From positions 1,178,001 through 1,242,000 of the forward strand of contig NZ_LT906465.1 of NCBI RefSeq assembly GCF_900187185.1: 64,000 bases of DNA, read 5' to 3'. The translations under genes and the position numbers were made by a program. Source of the DNA: Chryseobacterium taklimakanense (GTDB taxonomy: Bacteria > Bacteroidota > Bacteroidia > Flavobacteriales > Weeksellaceae). This document shows positions 40,455 to 47,418 of this stretch, piece after piece. Positions within the stretch are counted from its first letter, which is position 1, and each line of letters begins with the position of its first letter. The notes below the pieces were generated by a model. The model was not told where the DNA came from. It worked only from the letters and a program-made list of their open reading frames with translations, and did not search any database.

Positions 40455-40525
40455 AGACCTATGGTGTAGCGGTAACACTACTGATTTTGGTTCAGTCATC
40501 TGGGGTTCGAATCCCTGTGGGTCTA
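40455..40525 (+). tRNA. tRNA-Gln (anticodon UUG), integration site of the island
   Basis: Acceptor AGACCTA pairs with TGGGTCT (one T-G wobble); anticodon stem ACTGA/TCAGT encloses the loop TTTTGGT, giving anticodon TTG; the T-arm GGGGTTCGAATCCC is complete. 71 nt; CCA is not encoded. Its last 14 nt form part of the att site shared with the right end of the element at 47404-47418. Confidence 0.95.
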
Positions 40526-40526
40526 C
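40512..40526. repeat. att core, tRNA side (attL)
   Basis: TCCCTGTGGGTCTAC, the end of the tRNA T-arm and acceptor, identical to 47404-47418. It marks the left junction of the island. Confidence 0.85.
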
Positions 40527-40538
40527 TTATTTACTTTT

Positions 40539-40566
40539 AACGCTCTGATTATCAGGGCGTTTTTTA
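40539..40566 (+). terminator. Terminator after tRNA-Gln, supplied by the element
   Basis: Stem AACGCTCTGA/TCAGGGCGTT followed by six T. The original chromosomal terminator now lies beyond the right junction at 47425-47452. Confidence 0.8.
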
Positions 40567-40572
40567 TTTCTA

Positions 40573-40592
40573 GGGGAACCGTTGGGGAACCA
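40573..40592. repeat. Left arm repeat: two GGGGAACC boxes
   Basis: GGGGAACCGTTGGGGAACCA, identical to 47237-47256. Two 8-bp boxes 11 bp apart, one helical turn; probable integrase or excisionase arm-binding site. Confidence 0.65.
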
Positions 40593-40605
40593 GTTTGGTT
40601 TTTAG

Positions 40606-41220
40606 TCATTTTTTAGCTGTTTTTTTAAACGCTCTGCGTTCCATTCTTTCTAACATTGCAGCCATTAAAATTTCCTGATCGCCTGCCTGATTTATCAATT
40701 TATTAAGGCGGGAATATCTTTTTGTTGGTTTGCCGTTGTAATATCTTTTAAAATGTTTGCTGAAAATTTCCTGATACGGATCATCGCGGTAGTATTTCCC
40801 TAATTTACTGCAAACCCTCATCCTTTTGTTCTCTATTTGGCATTCATACATTAACCCGAACGCGGAACGGTGCAGAAAATAACCACTATGCAAATATAGG
40901 TTCCTGCAAAGTTTCCCAGTTTTGGGGCATACAAAAAACCAAATAACGCCCTTCCCCAAATTGGACGGGCGCGTTACCAGTTGAACGGTGTAATCTATTT
41001 TATTATCCTCGTTGTGGGTGTAGTACAGACGTGCGCTCCCTCGATCTGATAACATCGTTACGATTATGCCGATCGTATTTTTGTCCCCATTGCGCGACGT
41101 CCAAATTATCTGTCCTGATTTTGTGCTGTCGGGGTTTAGGTAATTGTGTTTTTTGAGAAATGATATTTCAATTCTGCGTAAACTGTCGGTAGTGGTTGGA
41201 TATGTTGCCCAGCGTCCCAT
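40606..41220 (-). CDS. Conserved unknown protein of the element with CPxTGKxCRNLYL motif
   Basis: A 204-residue basic protein, last gene before the left junction. The middle holds WFFVCPKTGKLCRNLYLHSGYFLHR, a CPxTGKxC pair followed by a hydrophobic/aromatic stretch; I recall similar sequences as unannotated proteins in Bacteroidota phages and mobile elements. A further Cys pair (YECQIENKRMRVCSKLG) may complete a zinc site. The C-terminus is Lys/Arg-rich, hinting at nucleic-acid binding. Function unknown. Spacing of 216 bp to the primase gene leaves room for its own promoter; that gap holds nothing else beyond a CGCGCGCGCG run. Confidence 0.6.
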   Translation of the reverse strand: MGRWATYPTTTDSLRRIEISFLKKHNYLNPDSTKSGQIIWTSRNGDKNTIGIIVTMLSDRGSARLYYTHNEDNKIDYTVQLVTRPSNLGKGVIWFFVCPKTGKLCRNLYLHSGYFLHRSAFGLMYECQIENKRMRVCSKLGKYYRDDPYQEIFSKHFKRYYNGKPTKRYSRLNKLINQAGDQEILMAAMLERMERRAFKKTAKK

Positions 41221-41436
41221 ATTTTAAATTTTAAATAACTCCCTATCTGATACGCGCGTAATGACTTTAGAAAAATCTTTTTTTATGGTTTCCGAAAACT
41301 AAAATATTTTGAGCGTTGCCCCTCGCGCGCGCGTAATTGTCCGCAAATTCTAATTGTTTAGCCATAAAACTAAACTTCTGTACTTTTACGATCTATTCCA
41401 CCCAGCTACAAAAATAACCTAAATTATTAAGGAATA

Positions 41437-42357
41437 TCAGGTTTTAATCTTCCCGCGACGTTCTCCGTAACCGATTTTATAAAGTTCCTGAGCGGTTTTT
41501 ATTATATCCCCTCCGTTATATTGATATGCTAAAATATGATAGGGTGTTAATAATTTTTGCGCGGGGTATCGTGTACCTGTACTAAACAAATAAATTCCAT
41601 TATCGAAAATATAACCGGAATATGCAGACTTCGCCCCGTGCCGTTTTATAGCCGTGTATTTACCACGTTTTCCAACAATAGTAAACTCATCCCTGATTAA
41701 ATCCCAAACGTCTGTATTTTGGTTAAAATCGTCCCACGCGGATAATGTAGCGGTGGTACTAATTGTTTTCTTTTTTTTAGGCGGTTCCTGTGGTTCGGGA
41801 ACCTCATCAAACATCCGGCAAACAAACAAAATAACTTCCCGTTCCTCCGGTGTAATTTCTTTGATTTGAGAATAGTCCAGTTCGCTAACTTTATTCTCAA
41901 AATAGGCGACTACATAACCGTATTTTCCGCGCGTTTCAATTAGTGCCTCCTGTTTACCTCTGATCCGTGCTATCTTTTTGTTTCCCTCTATCTCTCTACA
42001 TCTGAAAAGTAAATGAAACCCTCCGCTGCGGGTTCGGTATAATGCTATTTTATTATCAAAGTCGGGTATATGGTCGCGCAACAGTGCAAAAAAATTACTT
42101 TCAAAAAAAACGCGTTCCTGCTCATCATCTAAAATTTTAGTGTCTACGTCTATGCACTGCAGATTATTGTAGCCCGTAATAATTGCAAAATCTGTCGCGC
42201 CTGTCGTTACGGAAATATCTTTTAATTGTTCCCCAGTCATCGGTGTAGATTGATACGGTTTCCACGTTTTGACGGTCGGAATTTTGGCGGAATTTACCGG
42301 AATTATGGAAAAATCTTTTGTTAGTGCTGTTGCTGATTTTATTTTGCTGCTATCCAT
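41437..42357 (-). CDS. PrimPol-type bifunctional DNA primase/polymerase
   Basis: A 306-residue replication primase of the archaeo-eukaryotic superfamily, N-terminal prim-pol type found in plasmids, phages and satellites. Supporting motifs are FSIIPVNSAKIPTVKTWKPYQ near residue 16, the metal-binding LQCIDVDTK near 67 (Asp-x-Asp) and SGGFHLLFRC near 106 (the Ser/Gly-x-His motif). The C-terminal ~100 residues are variable. The start codon directly follows the shared leader motif of the element (42361-42376), and a repeat-rich origin candidate lies between this gene and the ATPase gene. It probably primes replication of the element. Confidence 0.83.
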   Translation of the reverse strand: MDSSKIKSATALTKDFSIIPVNSAKIPTVKTWKPYQSTPMTGEQLKDISVTTGATDFAIITGYNNLQCIDVDTKILDDEQERVFFESNFFALLRDHIPDFDNKIALYRTRSGGFHLLFRCREIEGNKKIARIRGKQEALIETRGKYGYVVAYFENKVSELDYSQIKEITPEEREVILFVCRMFDEVPEPQEPPKKKKTISTTATLSAWDDFNQNTDVWDLIRDEFTIVGKRGKYTAIKRHGAKSAYSGYIFDNGIYLFSTGTRYPAQKLLTPYHILAYQYNGGDIIKTAQELYKIGYGERRGKIKT

Positions 42358-42360
42358 TTT

Positions 42361-42376
42361 TGTAAGTTATTGAACA
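42361..42376 (-). promoter_or_regulatory. Shared leader motif before the primase gene
   Basis: Minus strand TGTTCAATAACTTACA, ending 3 nt before the ATG. One of four copies of TGTTCAA (3-6 nt) CTTACA that precede genes of the element. Confidence 0.5.
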
Positions 42377-42390
42377 TTAGTATTTTAAGT

Positions 42391-42496
42391 AACGGTTTAA
42401 CAGTTTAAACTGTATTCTTAAACTTTAAACTGTTGCGCCAACGGTTTACGGTTTAACAGTTTAAGGCGTATATATAACGCCTAAACTTAAACTGTT
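42391..42496. repeat. Iteron-like cluster, candidate replication origin of the element
   Basis: Within 106 bp there are five copies of a TTTAAACTGTT-type box in both orientations (42399-42408, 42404-42413, 42424-42434, 42455-42464, 42487-42496), two overlapping to make the palindrome ACAGTTTAAACTGT, plus a palindrome AGGCGT/ACGCCT (42464-42482) around a TA-only core suited to melting. It lies between primase and helicase-like ATPase genes. Additional single boxes occur inside the ATPase gene (42713-42723) and near 44284-44294. Confidence 0.65.
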
Positions 42497-42505
42497 AGGA
42501 AACCC

Positions 42506-43648
42506 TTAAACCTTTTCAAATTTTTCTCTTATATCGGGGTTAAGAATGTTAGGTTTAGATTTTCCCTTTTGCAGTTCGTCCGGCTGCAGAATTATCTGTT
42601 CGTTTCGGGCGCGAGTGATCAGGTTTTTTAAAAAGTTTTCTCCCACTTTCCGGGCAATTATGCCTAAATGTAAAACCGCTAACTGTCGTAAAGTTTGATC
42701 ATATCCCAACGGTTTAAACTGTTCCTGATTGAACACTTCAAAAAACAATTTTTCCAGCTGTTCCTCCGTTACCATATCGGGGGTAAACTTTTGTTTGCTC
42801 TCCCTGTCATTTTCAGGAACGCGCGCCTTAAATGGTAATCCGTGTTGGTCTATTTCAAAGGCGAACGGTTCCGGCTCCTTATTTCGGGTTTGTGTTGGGG
42901 TTACTACTGAAACATCGGAATTATTAGCGCGCTCCACTGCCAAAACTGTTTCTGCCTTATTTATTAGTTCTGTTCCCAAATGCCCCCGCGCGTTACTGTC
43001 GCCCTTATTTTGGTGCAGTATCGTAATGATATGAATATTTCGTTCCTCTGTCCATTTTAGAAACCTCCCTGCAATATCGGACGCCTCTTTAGGATCGTTA
43101 ATATCAAAAGTTATATCCCTGACCCCGTCAATTACTACGAACCCCAAGTTTTCAGTATTGTAAATTTTAGCCTCTATTAATGCCAGTCTGCGGTCTGTGG
43201 GTTCGCTCCGCAATCCGTAAACGGAAAATCGGTTATCGTCGGTAATACCTGCCAGCCTGCAGATACGTTTTAAACTGCGCTGAACGTGCCATTTTCCTTG
43301 CTCTGTATCAAAATAGATTACTTTGTTTTGGTCGGTCGGTAAACATCCCTGAAAGGTTCGCATTATAGGTTTTTCCGAGAAAAGGGACGCGGTTAATATA
43401 CCTATTGCAAAAGTCTTTTTACTTTTAGCCTTTCCCGTTAATACGCTAAAATTTCCGAGTGTTCCAATAATGGCGTGATCGTCCGGATTTTCATCAATAA
43501 ACATTTTTATAGCTATTTCAGGCTCCGGTATTTCGTCCGTTACTAAAATGCGGTGTTGCTCTAATTCCTCCAGTAATTCCTCCGCTGAGGTTTCAGGTTT
43601 TTGCGGTTTCTTTGCAAATGCCAAAGGAATATTTATTTCGTTTGTCAT
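42506..43648 (-). CDS. RepA-like/RecA-fold ATPase of the element
   Basis: A 380-residue AAA/RecA-fold ATPase resembling replicative RepA helicases of plasmids and satellites. Walker A is LTGKAKSKKTFA near residue 71 (the usual Gly before Lys-Thr is Lys, as I have seen in Bacteroidota relatives), a Walker B region is GFVVIDGVRD near 167, and a switch-like ILHQNKGDSNARGHLG lies near 208. The C-terminal part (residues ~290-380) is helical and may bind DNA. Its start overlaps a 12-codon upstream frame (TAATG), which follows the shared leader motif. It likely loads on the iteron cluster just downstream. Confidence 0.8.
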   Translation of the reverse strand: MTNEINIPLAFAKKPQKPETSAEELLEELEQHRILVTDEIPEPEIAIKMFIDENPDDHAIIGTLGNFSVLTGKAKSKKTFAIGILTASLFSEKPIMRTFQGCLPTDQNKVIYFDTEQGKWHVQRSLKRICRLAGITDDNRFSVYGLRSEPTDRRLALIEAKIYNTENLGFVVIDGVRDITFDINDPKEASDIAGRFLKWTEERNIHIITILHQNKGDSNARGHLGTELINKAETVLAVERANNSDVSVVTPTQTRNKEPEPFAFEIDQHGLPFKARVPENDRESKQKFTPDMVTEEQLEKLFFEVFNQEQFKPLGYDQTLRQLAVLHLGIIARKVGENFLKNLITRARNEQIILQPDELQKGKSKPNILNPDIREKFEKV

Positions 43649-43686
43649 TATTTGGTTATCTTTGCGTTATCAATTTGGTTATCCAT
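43648..43686 (-). CDS. Possible 12-codon leader peptide before the ATPase gene
   Basis: MDNQIDNAKITK followed by TAA, whose last A is the first base of the ATPase ATG. Its start lies right behind the shared leader motif, in the position where the other genes carrying that motif begin. It is probably translated and couples to the ATPase gene; a direct role as a peptide is doubtful. Confidence 0.4.
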   Translation of the reverse strand: MDNQIDNAKITK

Positions 43687-43688
43687 TT

Positions 43689-43704
43689 TGTAAGGTCTTG
43701 AACA
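43689..43704 (-). promoter_or_regulatory. Shared leader motif before the ATPase gene
   Basis: Minus strand TGTTCAAGACCTTACA, directly after a TAGGTTTG promoter-type element that overlaps its first T-G. Confidence 0.55.
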
Positions 43705-43750
43705 AACCTAAAGGGAATGCGGAAATCCGTTTTCCCTTTTTTGTTCTCTA

Positions 43751-43957
43751 TTATTCGCTATCTTCCTGAGCGCGCTCTAAATAGTCCGCGAGGTCGGAAA
43801 TATCTAATTCATCCCCTGTTAATATGTAATGCAGCTCTGCAAATTCTTTGAAACACTGAAATAGAATTTCCATTTCAAATCCTGCGGTAACTCCGTTTTT
43901 TAATTCGTCTTTGGCGTTATCCAGTGCGACGGCTAATTTTCGTAATTCCATTGTCAA
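43751..43957 (-). CDS. Small unknown protein of the element (68 aa)
   Basis: A 68-residue acidic, mostly helical protein (MELRKLAVALDNAKDELKNG, then FAELHYILTGDELDISDLADYL). No recognised motif. Its ATG overlaps the stop of the 133-residue upstream gene by 4 nt, so it is translated from the same mRNA. Small acidic helical proteins in satellites are often regulators, but nothing here proves that. Confidence 0.5.
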   Translation of the reverse strand: MTMELRKLAVALDNAKDELKNGVTAGFEMEILFQCFKEFAELHYILTGDELDISDLADYLERAQEDSE

Positions 43958-44355
43958 AAGTTTTTAATTATTTCGTTTGTTAATTTCTCCCTGAAATCGG
44001 GGTTCCCCTTTGGATAGAATGCCCTGCAGACGCGTATAATGACGTTTTGGCGGTCGGGCGGTAGGTATACTATTATAAAAGATTTTACACCGTTTACGGG
44101 CAAATCTGAATAGTAGAAATTAGGGGTTCCGGTCGGGCGTAATCCGGCTAAACTGCATCTGCTCCAGTTGGTGGTGTCGCGTATCCGTAATAAATTATTT
44201 GCGCCCTGTATGGAATTATAGCCGTTGTTTACCTCCAGCCTGATAAGGTCGGGCAATAGGTCGGGAATTTCTGTAGAATGCAGTTTAAACTGTTGGAACG
44301 TCTTTTTTTCAGTATCAAAATGATACTCCAGTTTGTAGTGGTCCGGTTTGAACAT
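43954..44355 (-). CDS. Unknown protein of the element (133 aa)
   Basis: A 133-residue protein, predicted mixed alpha/beta, with the segments YHFDTEKKTFQQFKLHSTEIPDLLPDL and VKSFIIVYLPPDRQNVIIRVCRAFYP. No family recognised. It lies between the HTH/excisionase-like gene (11 nt away) and a 68-residue gene with which it overlaps by 4 nt. The three form a transcriptional unit placed between integrase module and replication module. Confidence 0.5.
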   Translation of the reverse strand: MFKPDHYKLEYHFDTEKKTFQQFKLHSTEIPDLLPDLIRLEVNNGYNSIQGANNLLRIRDTTNWSRCSLAGLRPTGTPNFYYSDLPVNGVKSFIIVYLPPDRQNVIIRVCRAFYPKGNPDFREKLTNEIIKNF

Positions 44356-44366
44356 CGCAATAAATT

Positions 44367-44639
44367 TTAGTCGTTAATGATCATTGCGTTTTCAATCTCA
44401 TCAAACCGGTAGTATACGCGGGAACCTAATTTGTAGGAACGTAATATTCCGCGACGTCGCCAGTCGTGCAGCGTTGGTTTGGTTATGCCGAACCGGTCGC
44501 ACACCTCATCTGCGGAAAGGTAGCGTTTCGGGGCGTTATCGGTTAGGAATTTGGTAAGGCGGTCGAAAAGGCGGGTTTCGACGTTTTCCGCTATTTGGTT
44601 AATGTTTTCCTGCGGAACGGTAATGTTTAAAGTTTGCAT
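44367..44639 (-). CDS. HTH excisionase / MerR-like DNA-binding protein
   Basis: A 90-residue protein with a C-terminal helix-turn-helix_17 excisionase-type domain: RYLSADEVCDRFGITKPTLHDWRRRGILRSYKLGSRVYYRFDEIE spans residues ~40-86 and matches the winged HTH of Bacteroidota excisionases, with the first 38 residues forming a coiled helix (INQIAENVETRLFDRLTKFL). It probably directs excision with the integrase or regulates the element. Two GTAAGTAAT repeats 11 bp apart upstream (44676-44695) could be its own operator. Confidence 0.82.
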   Translation of the reverse strand: MQTLNITVPQENINQIAENVETRLFDRLTKFLTDNAPKRYLSADEVCDRFGITKPTLHDWRRRGILRSYKLGSRVYYRFDEIENAMIIND

Positions 44640-44675
44640 CGTCGTATATTTTTAATTGATCAATGCAAATATTAT

Positions 44676-44695
44676 GTAAGTAATTAGTAAGTAAT
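44676..44695. promoter_or_regulatory. Direct repeat, candidate operator upstream of the HTH gene
   Basis: GTAAGTAAT at 44676-44684 and 44687-44695, one helical turn apart, 37 nt before the HTH gene start. Confidence 0.4.
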
Positions 44696-44721
44696 GTGCG
44701 GAATTACTTTTTCTTAACTAA

Positions 44722-44752
44722 ATAAAAAAACGCTAACTATTTGCCAGCGTTT
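44722..44752 (-). terminator. Terminator at the end of the 342-aa gene
   Basis: AACGCT/AGCGTT stem with an 11-nt loop and T-run on the minus strand; it overlaps the gene's TAG stop. It separates the integrase-proximal genes from the HTH gene. Confidence 0.6.
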
Positions 44753-45765
44753 GTATTTGTTATTTCGGGTTTTAACTTCATTTTCAGCAATTGTTTATTA
44801 GCCTGCTGCAGATTTTCAGGGTTTTTATAGGGACTGTTTTTGTTTCCGTCGTCCCGTATAGGTTGCAACATCGGTAACAGATAGGAATACAAAGCTTTTG
44901 AATTAATGCCAGTTATCGCGGATAAAATTTGCGCTGTGTGCTGTATTGTGTCGGGTTTTTGCTGCAAAGATTTTACAAAATCTATTATCCCCAATTTTTC
45001 CAGCATAATAACGCGCGCCTTTGGTTCGGTATCTGAAAAATCAAATTCGGGTGTCTCCGGTTCGGGCGTTGGTGCAATTTGTTGAGGTTCCGGGGCGTTT
45101 ATCCTATCATTAATCCAATCATAAATGCGTATTACTGAAATTTTGTAATTCTCATATTTTGCAGAATCGAAATACAAAAACTGCCCAATAGAATATTCAT
45201 TTTCATTGATATATTCCTGTAATTCGTCGTTTGTTATTGTTGAAAACTGAACAAATTTTTCAAACGTTTGAAAGTCTTTTCCTGAATAAAGAAAATCAGA
45301 ATTATTATAAGGACTTTTCTTTTCCTCATATCCTACAATATCTAAATAAGAACCGGGGTCGTCAGGATCATCCAAATAATGCACTACCGTATCTAATATT
45401 TTATTTTCAGCAAAAAAATGAAAATGACTTTTCTTTTCTATTGCCAATTCAAAATAAAAATCATTCAAACGGTCAGGGTCATCAGCAAAATAATTAAACA
45501 GTCTAACATCCAATTCATTAGAAATATTTTGAACAGTTTTAGTTGTTTTTAAATACCGTTTTAAAACTTCATCATAATACGAAACCTCAATTTCAATATC
45601 TTTTGTTTCTAAATACAAAGGGTCTATTTCGGCTCCGTAAGTAGATAATAACTTTTTAAGATATATTTTTTCGGAACCGTCGGGAAGTTGTTTTTTCCAG
45701 TCCTCAAAATCCTTATTATAGTTATTCTTAAATTCAGTAAAAGAATAGTAAAAAGGTAATTCCAT
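44737..45765 (-). CDS. Unknown protein of the element with C-terminal helical domain (342 aa)
   Basis: A 342-residue acidic, AT-rich gene product. The first ~220 residues are rich in Asp/Tyr/Phe and show no known fold. After a Pro-rich linker (EPQQIAPTPEPETPEFDF), residues ~255-335 form a helical domain with ARVIMLEKLGIIDFVKSLQ and ILSAITGINSKALYSYLLPML, a block I recall at the C-terminus of many unannotated Bacteroidota mobile-element proteins. Its start follows a copy of the shared leader motif (45778-45793). Being next to the integrase, it may be an accessory or regulatory protein; this is inference. Confidence 0.6.
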   Translation of the reverse strand: MELPFYYSFTEFKNNYNKDFEDWKKQLPDGSEKIYLKKLLSTYGAEIDPLYLETKDIEIEVSYYDEVLKRYLKTTKTVQNISNELDVRLFNYFADDPDRLNDFYFELAIEKKSHFHFFAENKILDTVVHYLDDPDDPGSYLDIVGYEEKKSPYNNSDFLYSGKDFQTFEKFVQFSTITNDELQEYINENEYSIGQFLYFDSAKYENYKISVIRIYDWINDRINAPEPQQIAPTPEPETPEFDFSDTEPKARVIMLEKLGIIDFVKSLQQKPDTIQHTAQILSAITGINSKALYSYLLPMLQPIRDDGNKNSPYKNPENLQQANKQLLKMKLKPEITNTNAGK

Positions 45766-45777
45766 AATGTTAAGTTT

Positions 45778-45793
45778 TGTAAGGTTTTGAACA
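45778..45793 (-). promoter_or_regulatory. Shared leader motif before the 342-aa gene
   Basis: Minus strand TGTTCAAAACCTTACA, 12 nt before the ATG. Confidence 0.5.
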
Positions 45794-45839
45794 CGTTAAA
45801 AAAGGGCGGTTTCCATCCCCGCTATTATTAAGATTAAAA

Positions 45840-47186
45840 TTAGTTTGCTGTTTTAGTTTTTTCAGGCTCTACAGTGCCGGAAACGGGGCTATTTTCCATT
45901 ATTTCCCAGTAGTGATACATCTGTTCGGATAGGGTGGAATTATCTATTCCTATGTAGCCGAGAAACTCCCGTTCGGTTTTGTGTCCGGTTACTGCCATTA
46001 TTACGGCTGTGGGAATTTTACTGTAATGCATTGTTGCAAACGTGCGCCTGCAGACGTGCGAGGAAATCACTTTATAAAACGGATAGTTTCCGAAAACATA
46101 ACATTTTTTAACCGGATCGTACACCCTGCCGTAATCCAAACGGTCTATTTCTGCCAGTCGGGCGACGGTTTCCAAGTGTGTGTTAAAAATCGTTTTGCAG
46201 CTGTCTATATTGCTGCTGTAAACGGGCGGAAAATTGCCGTTCCTTTTGTCCAGTATCTTTTTTACTTCGGGGTGTATGGGAACCACTACGGGCGTTTTTG
46301 TTTTGCGCTGCGCTACGTTTATAAAGTCTTTGCCGTTAATGTTTACGATTTTCTTTTTGGTCATCCCGAACAGATCGGACGCCCTTTGTCCAGTGTAGCA
46401 TCCGATAATTAGCCAGTCCCGCGTTATTTCCAGTTTTTCATTTCCGATTAATATTAAATCCTGTATTTTGGCAAGTTCGGTTTCTGTGAGGTAGTGCGTT
46501 GGGGTGTCTGTGGTAAAACCTTTAATTTCTGTTAGTTGATCGTGAACGGCTACGCCCTCCAGTTTGGCATCTTTAAAAATTGTTTTGGTGTATTTTAGAT
46601 ATTTCCCTACAGTATTGTCGCTGAGGTTCTGCCCGCGTAAAAAGGTAACAAACCGGTTGCCTACGGAAATATTATAATCGGAAACTTTCAGGCGTTTTTT
46701 TTCGGTCTGCAGAAATTCTAAAAACTTTGAAATTATGGTTTCGTGTTTCTGCTGCGTGCGGTAAGAAATTGGCTGCCCCTTGTATTTGCGGAATGGTAGA
46801 ATTTGGGCGCGGTAATGCTCTAAATAGTTGTCTATGTAGTCCAGTTCGACTACGCGTTTACCGTCATTATAAAACCCTGCAATAACCTCATCTAACCAGT
46901 CCCCTGTTATCAGTTCGTTATCCCCCCTTTTTTGGTATTCCTGCAGAATAAAGTTTTCCAAACCGGAAAGGCGGGTTTTTAATTCGTTGTGCTGCTGCAG
47001 AAAATCAGCGGTTCCCGATTTTATGTTTTTGGGAAAACCTTTTGCATCCGGTTGTCCGTTCCAGTGTTCGGGGTTTACGGTTTCGCGTGTTTTTCGTTTG
47101 AATTTAGTATTCCGGTCTGCGGAGAAATTAACGTAAATAGTCGCGTTGGGTGTGGTCGTCCTAATGAAATAGAAAATTTTTGCCAT
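45840..47186 (-). CDS. Tyrosine recombinase (site-specific integrase)
   Basis: A 448-residue integrase that recombines the element at the tRNA-Gln 3' end. The N-terminal arm-binding domain and SAM-like core-binding domain (ISYRTQQKHETIISKFLEFLQTEKKR) precede the catalytic domain, in which the Arg is in IGCYTGQRASDL near residue 268, the His-x-x-Arg in SHVCRRTFATMHY near 380, the third His in VTGHKTEREFLGYI near 405 and the nucleophile Tyr follows in this last segment or at MYHYW near 425. Full length. Promoter element TATCTTTG at 47212-47219. Directly adjacent to the right junction, as usual. Confidence 0.93.
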   Translation of the reverse strand: MAKIFYFIRTTTPNATIYVNFSADRNTKFKRKTRETVNPEHWNGQPDAKGFPKNIKSGTADFLQQHNELKTRLSGLENFILQEYQKRGDNELITGDWLDEVIAGFYNDGKRVVELDYIDNYLEHYRAQILPFRKYKGQPISYRTQQKHETIISKFLEFLQTEKKRLKVSDYNISVGNRFVTFLRGQNLSDNTVGKYLKYTKTIFKDAKLEGVAVHDQLTEIKGFTTDTPTHYLTETELAKIQDLILIGNEKLEITRDWLIIGCYTGQRASDLFGMTKKKIVNINGKDFINVAQRKTKTPVVVPIHPEVKKILDKRNGNFPPVYSSNIDSCKTIFNTHLETVARLAEIDRLDYGRVYDPVKKCYVFGNYPFYKVISSHVCRRTFATMHYSKIPTAVIMAVTGHKTEREFLGYIGIDNSTLSEQMYHYWEIMENSPVSGTVEPEKTKTAN

Positions 47187-47189
47187 AAT

Positions 47190-47209
47190 TGTAAGGTTTA
47201 TTTGAACAT
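47190..47209 (-). promoter_or_regulatory. Shared leader motif before the integrase gene
   Basis: Minus strand AATGTTCAAATAAACCTTACA, 3 nt before the ATG; it lies just downstream of the -7 element, so it should form the 5' end of the mRNA. Confidence 0.5.
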
Positions 47210-47211
47210 TA

Positions 47212-47219
47212 CAAAGATA
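47212..47219 (-). promoter_or_regulatory. -7 promoter element TATCTTTG for the integrase gene
   Basis: Exact TAnnTTTG match on the minus strand 25 nt upstream of the ATG. Confidence 0.55.
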
Positions 47220-47236
47220 GCATTTATTTTAATTTT

Positions 47237-47256
47237 GGGGAACCGTTGGGGAACCA
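47237..47256. repeat. Right arm repeat: two GGGGAACC boxes
   Basis: GGGGAACCGTTGGGGAACCA, identical to 40573-40592, upstream of the integrase promoter; probable arm-type site that could also autoregulate the integrase. Confidence 0.65.
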
Positions 47257-47403
47257 AACTGTATTTTATCTTAAACGCATTTTAATCAAAAACCACAAAC
47301 GAACATTATAAACATATTGTAATCCCTTTATTAATCGGTGTTTTGGGTTTTTTAGAATATTTCTAAATAGTCGGTATAATTTAAACAAAATATAGGTTTA
47401 TTC

Positions 47404-47418
47404 TCCCTGTGGGTCTAC
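47404..47418. repeat. att core, right junction (attR)
   Basis: TCCCTGTGGGTCTAC, copy of the tRNA-Gln 3' end, followed by the presumed original downstream sequence. Confidence 0.85.

What the first reader, a model, noticed from the sequence alone, without database searches (positions are those of the whole stretch)
40512..47418. Minimal satellite-like integrative element at tRNA-Gln with its own replication module
A 6.9-kb element with a 15-bp att repeat at the tRNA 3' end carries integrase, excisionase-like HTH, PrimPol primase and RepA-like ATPase, but no relaxase, capsid, portal or terminase gene. That is the gene logic of a phage satellite (PICI/P4-like) or integrative plasmid. Such satellites are barely described in Flavobacteriia, and three of the eight genes are unrecognised.
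Basis: partly seen in the sequence, partly recalled or inferred. Interest (0 to 1): 0.78.

Follow-up and report, generated by a model that had tools for sequence, protein, structure and literature searches.

The report
Minimal tRNA-Gln integrative island, helper unknown
A complete 6.9-kb mobile island sits at a glutamine tRNA gene and carries genes to cut itself out and copy itself but none recognised for moving to another cell; it belongs to a family of islands found in Flavobacteria and related bacteria whose replication genes are swapped between members.

Summary
In detail: an intact 6,892-bp element (40527-47418) lies between 15-bp copies of the tRNA-Gln 3' end, and two relatives of other genera have the empty site. 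Eight same-strand genes encode a tyrosine integrase, P342 (place of PICMI iolg or Tn4555 TnpC), an HTH_17 excisionase-like protein, two small proteins, a RepA-type helicase, a PrimPol and a conserved end protein, P204. No relaxase, capsid, portal or large terminase was recognised. It is not a decayed ICE or prophage. Related islands recur at several tRNA genes and at tmRNA; relatives carry defence or toxin cargo and exchange the replication module. New here: 21 of 25 att-bounded islands carry a pair of 7-10-bp sites exactly 11 bp apart at both ends, mostly beside the int promoter; in the window GGGGAACC-N3-GGGGAACC. 'Phage satellite' is not shown: the gene order matches both PICMI satellites and mobilizable Tn4555/NBU elements, and the host chromosome has five relaxase and three RteC genes but no Terminase_6N match. 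Best reading: a self-excising, self-replicating hitcher with unknown helper, conjugative slightly likelier than phage. New variant of a known kind.

The parts
40455..40526 (+). tRNA-Gln(TTG), the integration site; kept intact by the insertion
   Evidence: ARAGORN; Rfam RF00005
40512..40526 (+). att copy at the tRNA 3' end
   Evidence: exact 15-bp repeat
40573..40591 (+). tandem arm-type site, GGGGAACC x2, period 11, tRNA side (46 bp from att)
40606..41220 (-). P204: conserved end protein of the family, function unknown
   Evidence: 28 of 296 family genomes, 22 of 395 class genomes, own genome included; fold model of low confidence, no PDB match at E<=0.001
41437..42357 (-). PrimPol primase/polymerase
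   Evidence: PF09250 1.8e-9; phrog_19930 1.1e-23; 2 of 296 family genomes, own included
42377..42505 (.). putative replication origin: ACGGTTTAACAGTTTAA iteron-like repeats and hairpins between PrimPol and helicase
   Evidence: D5, D8; single-strand fold of 42358-42505, z -4.78; origin role inferred
42506..43648 (-). RepA-type (RecA-fold) helicase, AAA_25
   Evidence: PF13481 7.8e-10; model pLDDT 87.2; first VIA rows RSF1010 RepA, Z 20.0, rmsd 3.1, 221 aligned, tied with RAD51, RadA, DnaB; first Foldseek row is RadA, RepA second
43751..43957 (-). p68, unknown
   Evidence: one homologue among the loci searched, L180, also beside p133
43954..44355 (-). p133, unknown, conserved after the HTH gene
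   Evidence: 40-67% identity in relatives
44367..44639 (-). HTH_17 excisionase/AlpA-like protein
   Evidence: PF12728 2.6e-11; phrog_66 1.1e-7
44737..45765 (-). P342, gene next to int, conserved C-terminal part; position of iolg/TnpC
   Evidence: 16 of 296 family genomes, own included; alignments; gap to int 74 bp
45840..47186 (-). tyrosine integrase
   Evidence: PF13102 8.4e-10, PF00589 2.6e-7; 24 of 296 family genomes at E<=1e-60, own included
47237..47255 (+). tandem arm-type site, INT side (148 bp from att), next to the int promoter
47404..47418 (+). att copy at the far end

Best explanation
An intact minimal 'hitcher' element. Shown: it is inserted at the tRNA-Gln 3' end between 15-bp att copies, the site is empty in two relatives, and paired 8-bp sites 11 bp apart flank it just inside att. 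Inferred: the integrase binds these paired arm sites and the att core; HTH_17 acts as the excision factor together with P342; Int bound to the arm beside its own promoter also represses itself; the excised circle is copied by the RepA-type helicase and PrimPol from the iteron/hairpin region at 42377-42505, with P204 and p133 as accessory proteins. It cannot transfer itself. A helper moves it, most likely a resident conjugative element acting on an unrecognised oriT (about 0.4), otherwise a phage (about 0.3), or transfer is rare and plasmid-like (about 0.2).
For: Structure. Empty sites in L191 and L195, joined flanks 73% and 71% identical over about 1.5 kb across the junction. Islands with the order INT-P342-HTH-p133-replication-P204 recur. 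Paired arm sites: 21 of 25 att-bounded islands; with periods 5-30 allowed only 11 was found; Markov-resampled ends 0 of 1000; ends of different islands 20 of 600. TAnnTTTG just downstream of the INT-side arm in 17 of 21 against 4.5% (282 of 6,300) random stretches. Helicase fold. PrimPol. Origin-like region. No relaxase or large terminase recognised. A 6,969-bp circular Hymenobacter plasmid record, pHsw3, carries P204 with a distant relative (26% over 231 columns, two-sequence E 2e-12) of the other islands' Rep-like protein, which links P204 with replication.
Against: No excision, replication or transfer was observed. P204, p68, p133 and P342 have no known family. The origin rests on repeats and folding only. 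Four of 25 islands lack exact paired sites (one of them, L098, has them with one mismatch). Helper type is unresolved: relaxases or terminases of unrecognised families could have been missed, and Terminase_6N is the only packaging family sought in the host genome.
Confidence: 0.65

Rival explanations
1. Conjugative hitcher: a relaxase-less relative of Tn4555/NBU elements, mobilised in trans by a resident ICE or a relaxase-bearing element through an oriT.
For: Same backbone integrase-TnpC-excisionase-AAA ATPase-DUF6371 listed for Tn4555 in O. hominis (PMC13183296 passage) and a similar one seen in an element with mef(En2) and lnu(AN2) (the name NBU2 is recalled). The element in L017 has INT (27%), the same ATPase (37%), a Toprim primase and a Mob_Pre relaxase. 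The window genome has five PF03432 relaxases and three RteC genes outside the window.
Against: No listed PF03432 or PF01076 match falls inside an att-bounded island; the genomes of 24 of the 25 islands were covered (not that of L122). No oriT was identified; the primase type differs (PrimPol).
Confidence: 0.4
2. Phage satellite working like a PICMI: int, excision partner, HTH/AlpA and primase, packaged unmodified by a helper phage.
For: Gene order and size match PICMI (int-iolg-alpA-up1-prim, mean 6.7 kb, no packaging genes). Cargo of relatives includes defence genes. In one IMG/VR record an island of this family directly abuts phage genes and holds the record's only PF00589 match.
Against: P204: 0 of 50,697 phage records, two IMG/VR records. 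INT and PrimPol gave none in IMG/VR, but that scan is weak: it missed the 51% INT relative in L186 of the same collection. Terminase_6N in 3 of 30 genomes with islands, not in the window genome. Island size is not tight: INT-P204 distances reach 16-23 kb.
Confidence: 0.3
3. Integrative plasmid: a small plasmid replicon that acquired an integrase and persists mainly vertically.
For: Replication genes with an iteron-like origin; pHsw3 as a plasmid with P204 and a Rep-like protein.
Against: Spread across genera with mosaic gene affinities implies repeated transfer.
Confidence: 0.2
4. Decayed remnant of a larger ICE or prophage.
For: No recognised cargo or transfer gene in the window copy.
Against: All eight ORFs open; att and both arm pairs intact; many relatives have the same small size and order.
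Confidence: 0.04

Closest known systems
PICMI (phage-inducible chromosomal minimalist islands, Vibrio)
   Same: int, gene next to int, HTH/AlpA, intervening gene, primase; mean 6.7 kb; no packaging genes (PMC10803314: abstract and three result sections read)
   Different: tRNA-Gln instead of fis; non-Vibrio host; separate RepA-type helicase; P204; no helper phage known
Tn4555 / NBU-type mobilizable elements of Bacteroides
   Same: integrase, excisionase and AAA ATPase order, homologous AAA_25 ATPase; insertion at a Leu-tRNA 3' end for NBU1 (a reference title seen)
   Different: no relaxase found; PrimPol instead of a DUF6371 or Toprim/zinc-ribbon primase; P204; arm pairs at both ends not found in the two NBU2-like stretches examined (L211, L213)
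RSF1010 replication module (recalled apart from the RepA fold)
   Same: RepA-type helicase fold, separate primase, repeats and hairpins at a putative origin
   Different: PrimPol rather than RepB'; no RepC recognised; element integrates
P4 and PICI satellites (features recalled)
   Same: integrase, HTH regulator and replication genes in a small island
   Different: no packaging or capsid-remodelling gene recognised

Membership tests
PICMI | co-located int, alpA-like HTH and primase in this order | tested here: met
   compared; p133, p68 and the helicase lie between HTH and PrimPol
PICMI | integration at fis in Vibrionaceae | tested here: not met
   tRNA-Gln
PICMI | activation and packaging by a virulent helper phage | not testable with these tools
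   needs infection experiments
PICI / P4 satellites | packaging-redirecting or capsid-remodelling genes | tested here: inconclusive
   none recognised above cut-off; HTH protein matches a small-terminase PHROG weakly (0.0082) among many HTH families; four proteins have no family
Tn4555/NBU mobilizable elements | integrase, gene beside it, excisionase-like HTH, AAA ATPase and primase in this order | tested here: met
   primase of another type, and p133 and p68 between HTH and ATPase
Tn4555/NBU mobilizable elements | own relaxase | tested here: not met
   no relaxase match in the element; G000 has no PF01076 match and its five PF03432 matches lie elsewhere
Tn4555/NBU mobilizable elements | oriT | not testable with these tools
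   no oriT model used
ICE | type IV secretion and relaxase genes within the element | tested here: not met
   only a sub-threshold DotI/IcmL match of P342 (0.019)
RSF1010-type replicon | RepA-fold helicase | tested here: met
   ties with RadA/RAD51/DnaB mean fold class, not membership
RSF1010-type replicon | RepC iteron-binding initiator | tested here: inconclusive
   no family match for p68, p133, P204

The most novel reading that the evidence does not exclude
A Bacteroidota-wide family of minimal phage satellites, evolved apart from PICMIs, defined by INT-P342-HTH-p133-P204 with double-ended arm sites paired at 11 bp, interchangeable replication modules (PrimPol+RepA helicase, DUF6371 primase+RepA helicase, or a 430-aa Rep-like protein) and defence cargo, all packaged by unmodified helper phages.
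Probability: 0.28. Interest if true: 0.78.

Novelty: new variant of a known kind. Interest (0 to 1): 0.52.

Why it matters
It points to a recurrent, compact class of mobile islands in Flavobacteria and other Bacteroidia, members of which carry restriction, defence and toxin genes but no recognised means of transfer, with a sequence signature (paired sites 11 bp apart at both ends) that could find and delimit them automatically. Because the same excision-replication gene order underlies both phage satellites and conjugation-dependent elements, these islands allow a direct test of whether one backbone can serve both kinds of helper.

Tried and rejected
Rejected: decayed ICE or prophage (many relatives are equally small and ordered). 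P342 as an RteC relative: no match in the element even at E<=10. The 430-aa Rep-like protein as a filamentous-phage gene II relative: suggested by motifs recalled from memory; no Pfam, PHROG or NCBIfam support, left open. p77-like proteins as small terminases: no PHROG support. The 467-aa neighbour in the NBU2-like element: no Pfam match, hhalign probability to the Rep-like alignment 0.2%. P204 fold: mean pLDDT 64, no PDB match at E<=0.001; no clear sequence match in the PDB for helicase, PrimPol, P204 or Rep-like protein (best E 0.047). The 'circular phage' L185 was discounted: other PLSDB records of that series hold chromosomal genes (dnaK, lepA), so its circularity is not trusted. An Rfam rimP match at 47392 is below the gathering score. 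L041 is a phage contig that shares the helicase (43%) but, by my reading of its ORFs, not the island. The leader motif as one strict pattern: one search found no match in the element; a looser search did.

Limits of the surveys: the 25 islands are those in which I could set both ends from tRNA-end or INT-flank repeats among 75 longer loci; they are not a random sample, six of them (L119, L120, L122-L125) were set in the same repeat search that showed the arm pairs, and some share arm units (L166/L169/L175, L096/L105, L119/L120, L118/L122), leaving about 16 distinct units by eye. Three further loci (L015, L176, L180) show period-11 pairs at both ends but are outside the 25; L178 shows a period-12 pair. 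L211, L213, L017, L210, L212, L185 and L107 showed no double-ended pair within the stretch held. In L126 the tRNA lies on the INT side and no pair was found. The Pfam and PHROG tallies cover 105 of the 159 ORFs of 19 islands (those matching INT, HTH, ATPase or P204, and a few others, were left out) and list only 25 of 46 and 25 of 88 families, so a single relaxase or structural match could be hidden; two searches were run for relaxases for that reason. Single-protein IMG/VR scans find close relatives only: one search missed the 51% INT relative in L186. There was no control set of genomes without islands.
Full report
What is there. The window is bases 1178001-1242000 of a 2.76-Mb single-contig genome of an unnamed species; among the 99 genomes drawn as relatives none other is of its genus. 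tRNA-Gln(TTG) occupies 40455-40526. Its last 15 bases recur exactly at 47404-47418 and nowhere else in the window; about 6e-6 copies are expected by chance in the element. Between them are eight minus-strand genes: P204, PrimPol, a RepA-type helicase, p68, p133, an HTH_17 protein, P342 and a tyrosine integrase.

It is an insertion. A query made of the tRNA joined to the far flank matched along its whole length in G012 and G138, genomes of other genera of the family (most of the 117 of 120 genomes with a match there match only a part, such as the tRNA). Aligned at the junction, both have tRNA-Gln followed directly by the end of the next gene (argS by my reading) with no insert, 73% and 71% identity over about 1.5 kb. 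A third candidate (G144) was seen only in the listing.

It is a member of a family. Close integrases (E<=1e-60) occur in 24 of 296 family genomes, P204 in 28 of 296, P342 in 16 of 296, PrimPol in 2 of 296, the window's own genome included each time; the helicase in 12 of 99 relatives, own included. P204 occurs in 22 of 395 class genomes, 18 of 197 genera. In the islands closest to the window the order is INT - variable cargo - P342 - HTH - p133 - replication module - P204 - tRNA or tmRNA end, though not every island has every gene. Targets found: tRNA-Gln (L118, L121, and near P204 in L170 and L174), tRNA-Cys, -Leu, -Arg, -Ala, -Val, -Glu and tmRNA (L119, L120, L123, L124). Of 25 att-bounded islands, 22 measure 5.2-10.2 kb and three 11.9-13.4 kb; INT-P204 distances of 16-23 kb occur in four genomes (G186, G239, G228, G319).

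The replication module is exchanged. Several relatives have a 420-460-aa Rep-like protein with no family match. Flavobacterium and Tenacibaculum islands have the same helicase (43-46%) with, in those scanned, a DUF6371/zinc-ribbon primase (nine of 105 proteins match DUF6371). The window has the helicase with a PrimPol whose only relative in 296 genomes (47%) sits in a prophage-like region (my reading of the neighbours). Best relatives of each window gene among the 47 loci compared come from different islands, so the element is a mosaic. A 6,969-bp circular Hymenobacter plasmid record, pHsw3, carries P204 and a distant relative of the Rep-like protein, the best hint that P204 serves replication.

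Replication. The helicase model (18 sequences, mean pLDDT 87.2) gives RSF1010 RepA as first VIA row (1olo, Z 20.0, rmsd 3.1, 221 aligned), tied within 1 Z with RAD51, RadA and DnaB; Foldseek puts RadA first and RepA second. This is the fold class; the replicative role is inferred. Between PrimPol and helicase lie repeats ACGGTTTAACAGTTTAA and related palindromes; the strand folds better than all 200 shuffles (z -4.78). I infer the origin there.

Paired arm sites, the new observation. GGGGAACC occurs as a pair with 11-bp period at 40573 and again at 47237, in the same orientation; no other 8-mer in 64 kb forms such a pair twice at periods 9-14. Single copies in the other orientation lie at 44001 and 63238. 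In 25 islands with both ends set, 21 carry a pair of 7-10-bp units shared by both ends. Although periods from 5 to 30 were allowed, all 21 have period 11; Markov resamples of the ends gave 0 of 1000, and ends of different islands matched in 20 of 600 pairings, some between islands with the same arms. L126, L094, L098 and L103 missed; L098 qualifies with one mismatch. Distances to att are 34-57 bp on the tRNA side and 115-160 bp on the INT side (window 46 and 148). The INT-side pair is followed within about 60 bp by TAnnTTTG, the Bacteroidota -7 element (recalled), in 17 of 21, against 282 of 6,300 random stretches. This is what arm-type sites of an integrase with an arm-binding domain should look like; such a domain and arm sites are reported for the CTnDOT integrase, in a subgroup that includes NBU1 (PMC8138268 passages). 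That the window's integrase binds them, and autorepression of int, are inferences.

Satellite or not. For: gene order, size and lack of packaging genes match PICMI, where int, iolg and alpA are needed for excision and prim for replication (PMC10803314, abstract and three sections read). Cargo of relatives includes type IIG restriction, RmrA, SoFic, PifA and QatA matches (43 chosen proteins, two of them from pHsw3; 25 of 131 families shown). The window copy has no recognised defence gene; its HTH protein matches the mad1 model (9e-8), which I take for the shared HTH domain. One IMG/VR record joins an island of this family to phage genes, with the island's integrase the only PF00589 match in the 32.8-kb record; its far end runs off in tail-like genes (my reading), so it is a fragment and tandem insertion cannot be told from fusion. 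Against: P204 is in 0 of 50,697 phage records and two IMG/VR records; INT and PrimPol gave none, a weak negative since one search missed the 51% relative in L186. The order integrase-TnpC-excisionase-ATPase-DUF6371 is also listed for Tn4555 (PMC13183296, passages only) and a similar one is seen in an NBU2-like element, both of a conjugation-mobilised kind (recalled). Relaxase PF03432 matched in 18 of 30 genomes with islands (17 over the cut-off), none of the listed matches inside an att-bounded island by my comparison of coordinates; G000 has five, plus three RteC. PF01076 matched in 2 of 30, one inside the element of L017. Terminase_6N matched in 3 of 30, not G000. There was no control set without islands.

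Literature. Searches for phage satellites with Flavobacteri/integrase/primase, Bacteroidetes/helper phage, Bacteroid, Flavobacteri/prophage/integrative, and Chryseobacterium/integrative mobilizable/tRNA-Gln, for DUF6371 and Tn4555/tnpC, and for arm-type sites showed no description of this family or of the double-ended pairs in their listings. I read passages of PMC12324425, PMC11389934, PMC13183296, PMC8138268, PMC10367356 and PMC9745183. The library holds open-licence papers only, so older Bacteroides work is mostly missing.

Noticed in passing
window 42358-42376, 43686-43704, 45775-45793, 47189-47206: A shared leader motif, TTCAA..(A)CTTACAA, stands before the start codons of PrimPol, helicase, P342 and integrase; similar leaders precede int in many related islands. 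Role unknown.
   Followed up: partly
L120:12121-13380, L186:3078-4388, L184:4172-5527: A 420-460-aa Rep-like protein with no Pfam, NCBIfam or strong PHROG match stands in place of the PrimPol-helicase module in several islands and occurs with P204 on pHsw3.
   Followed up: partly
L119, L120, L123, L124: Islands of the family inserted at the 3' end of the tmRNA gene.
   Followed up: yes
L113, L115, L116, L117: Larger islands with closely related integrases (64-67%) carry very large, possibly secreted or RHS-like proteins and, in L117, a Vsr-like gene; labels are my reading of the sequence.
   Followed up: no
L186: An island of the family directly adjoins phage repressor and recombination genes in an IMG/VR record; fusion or tandem insertion.
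   Followed up: partly
plasmid records of the OY725xxx series, e.g. L212, L213: PLSDB records labelled complete circular plasmids contain dnaK and lepA and look like chromosome contigs.
   Followed up: no
NC_011893.1:39547-39975 and three other Methylobacterium plasmid records: P204 has weak matches (31-32% identity over half to two thirds of its length) on Methylobacterium plasmids, outside Bacteroidota.
   Followed up: no
G347:C20:261808-263030: Two adjacent P204 copies.
   Followed up: no
G000:C1:2173455-2242628: Two relaxase and two RteC genes within 70 kb of the host chromosome, probably conjugative elements that could be helpers.
   Followed up: no
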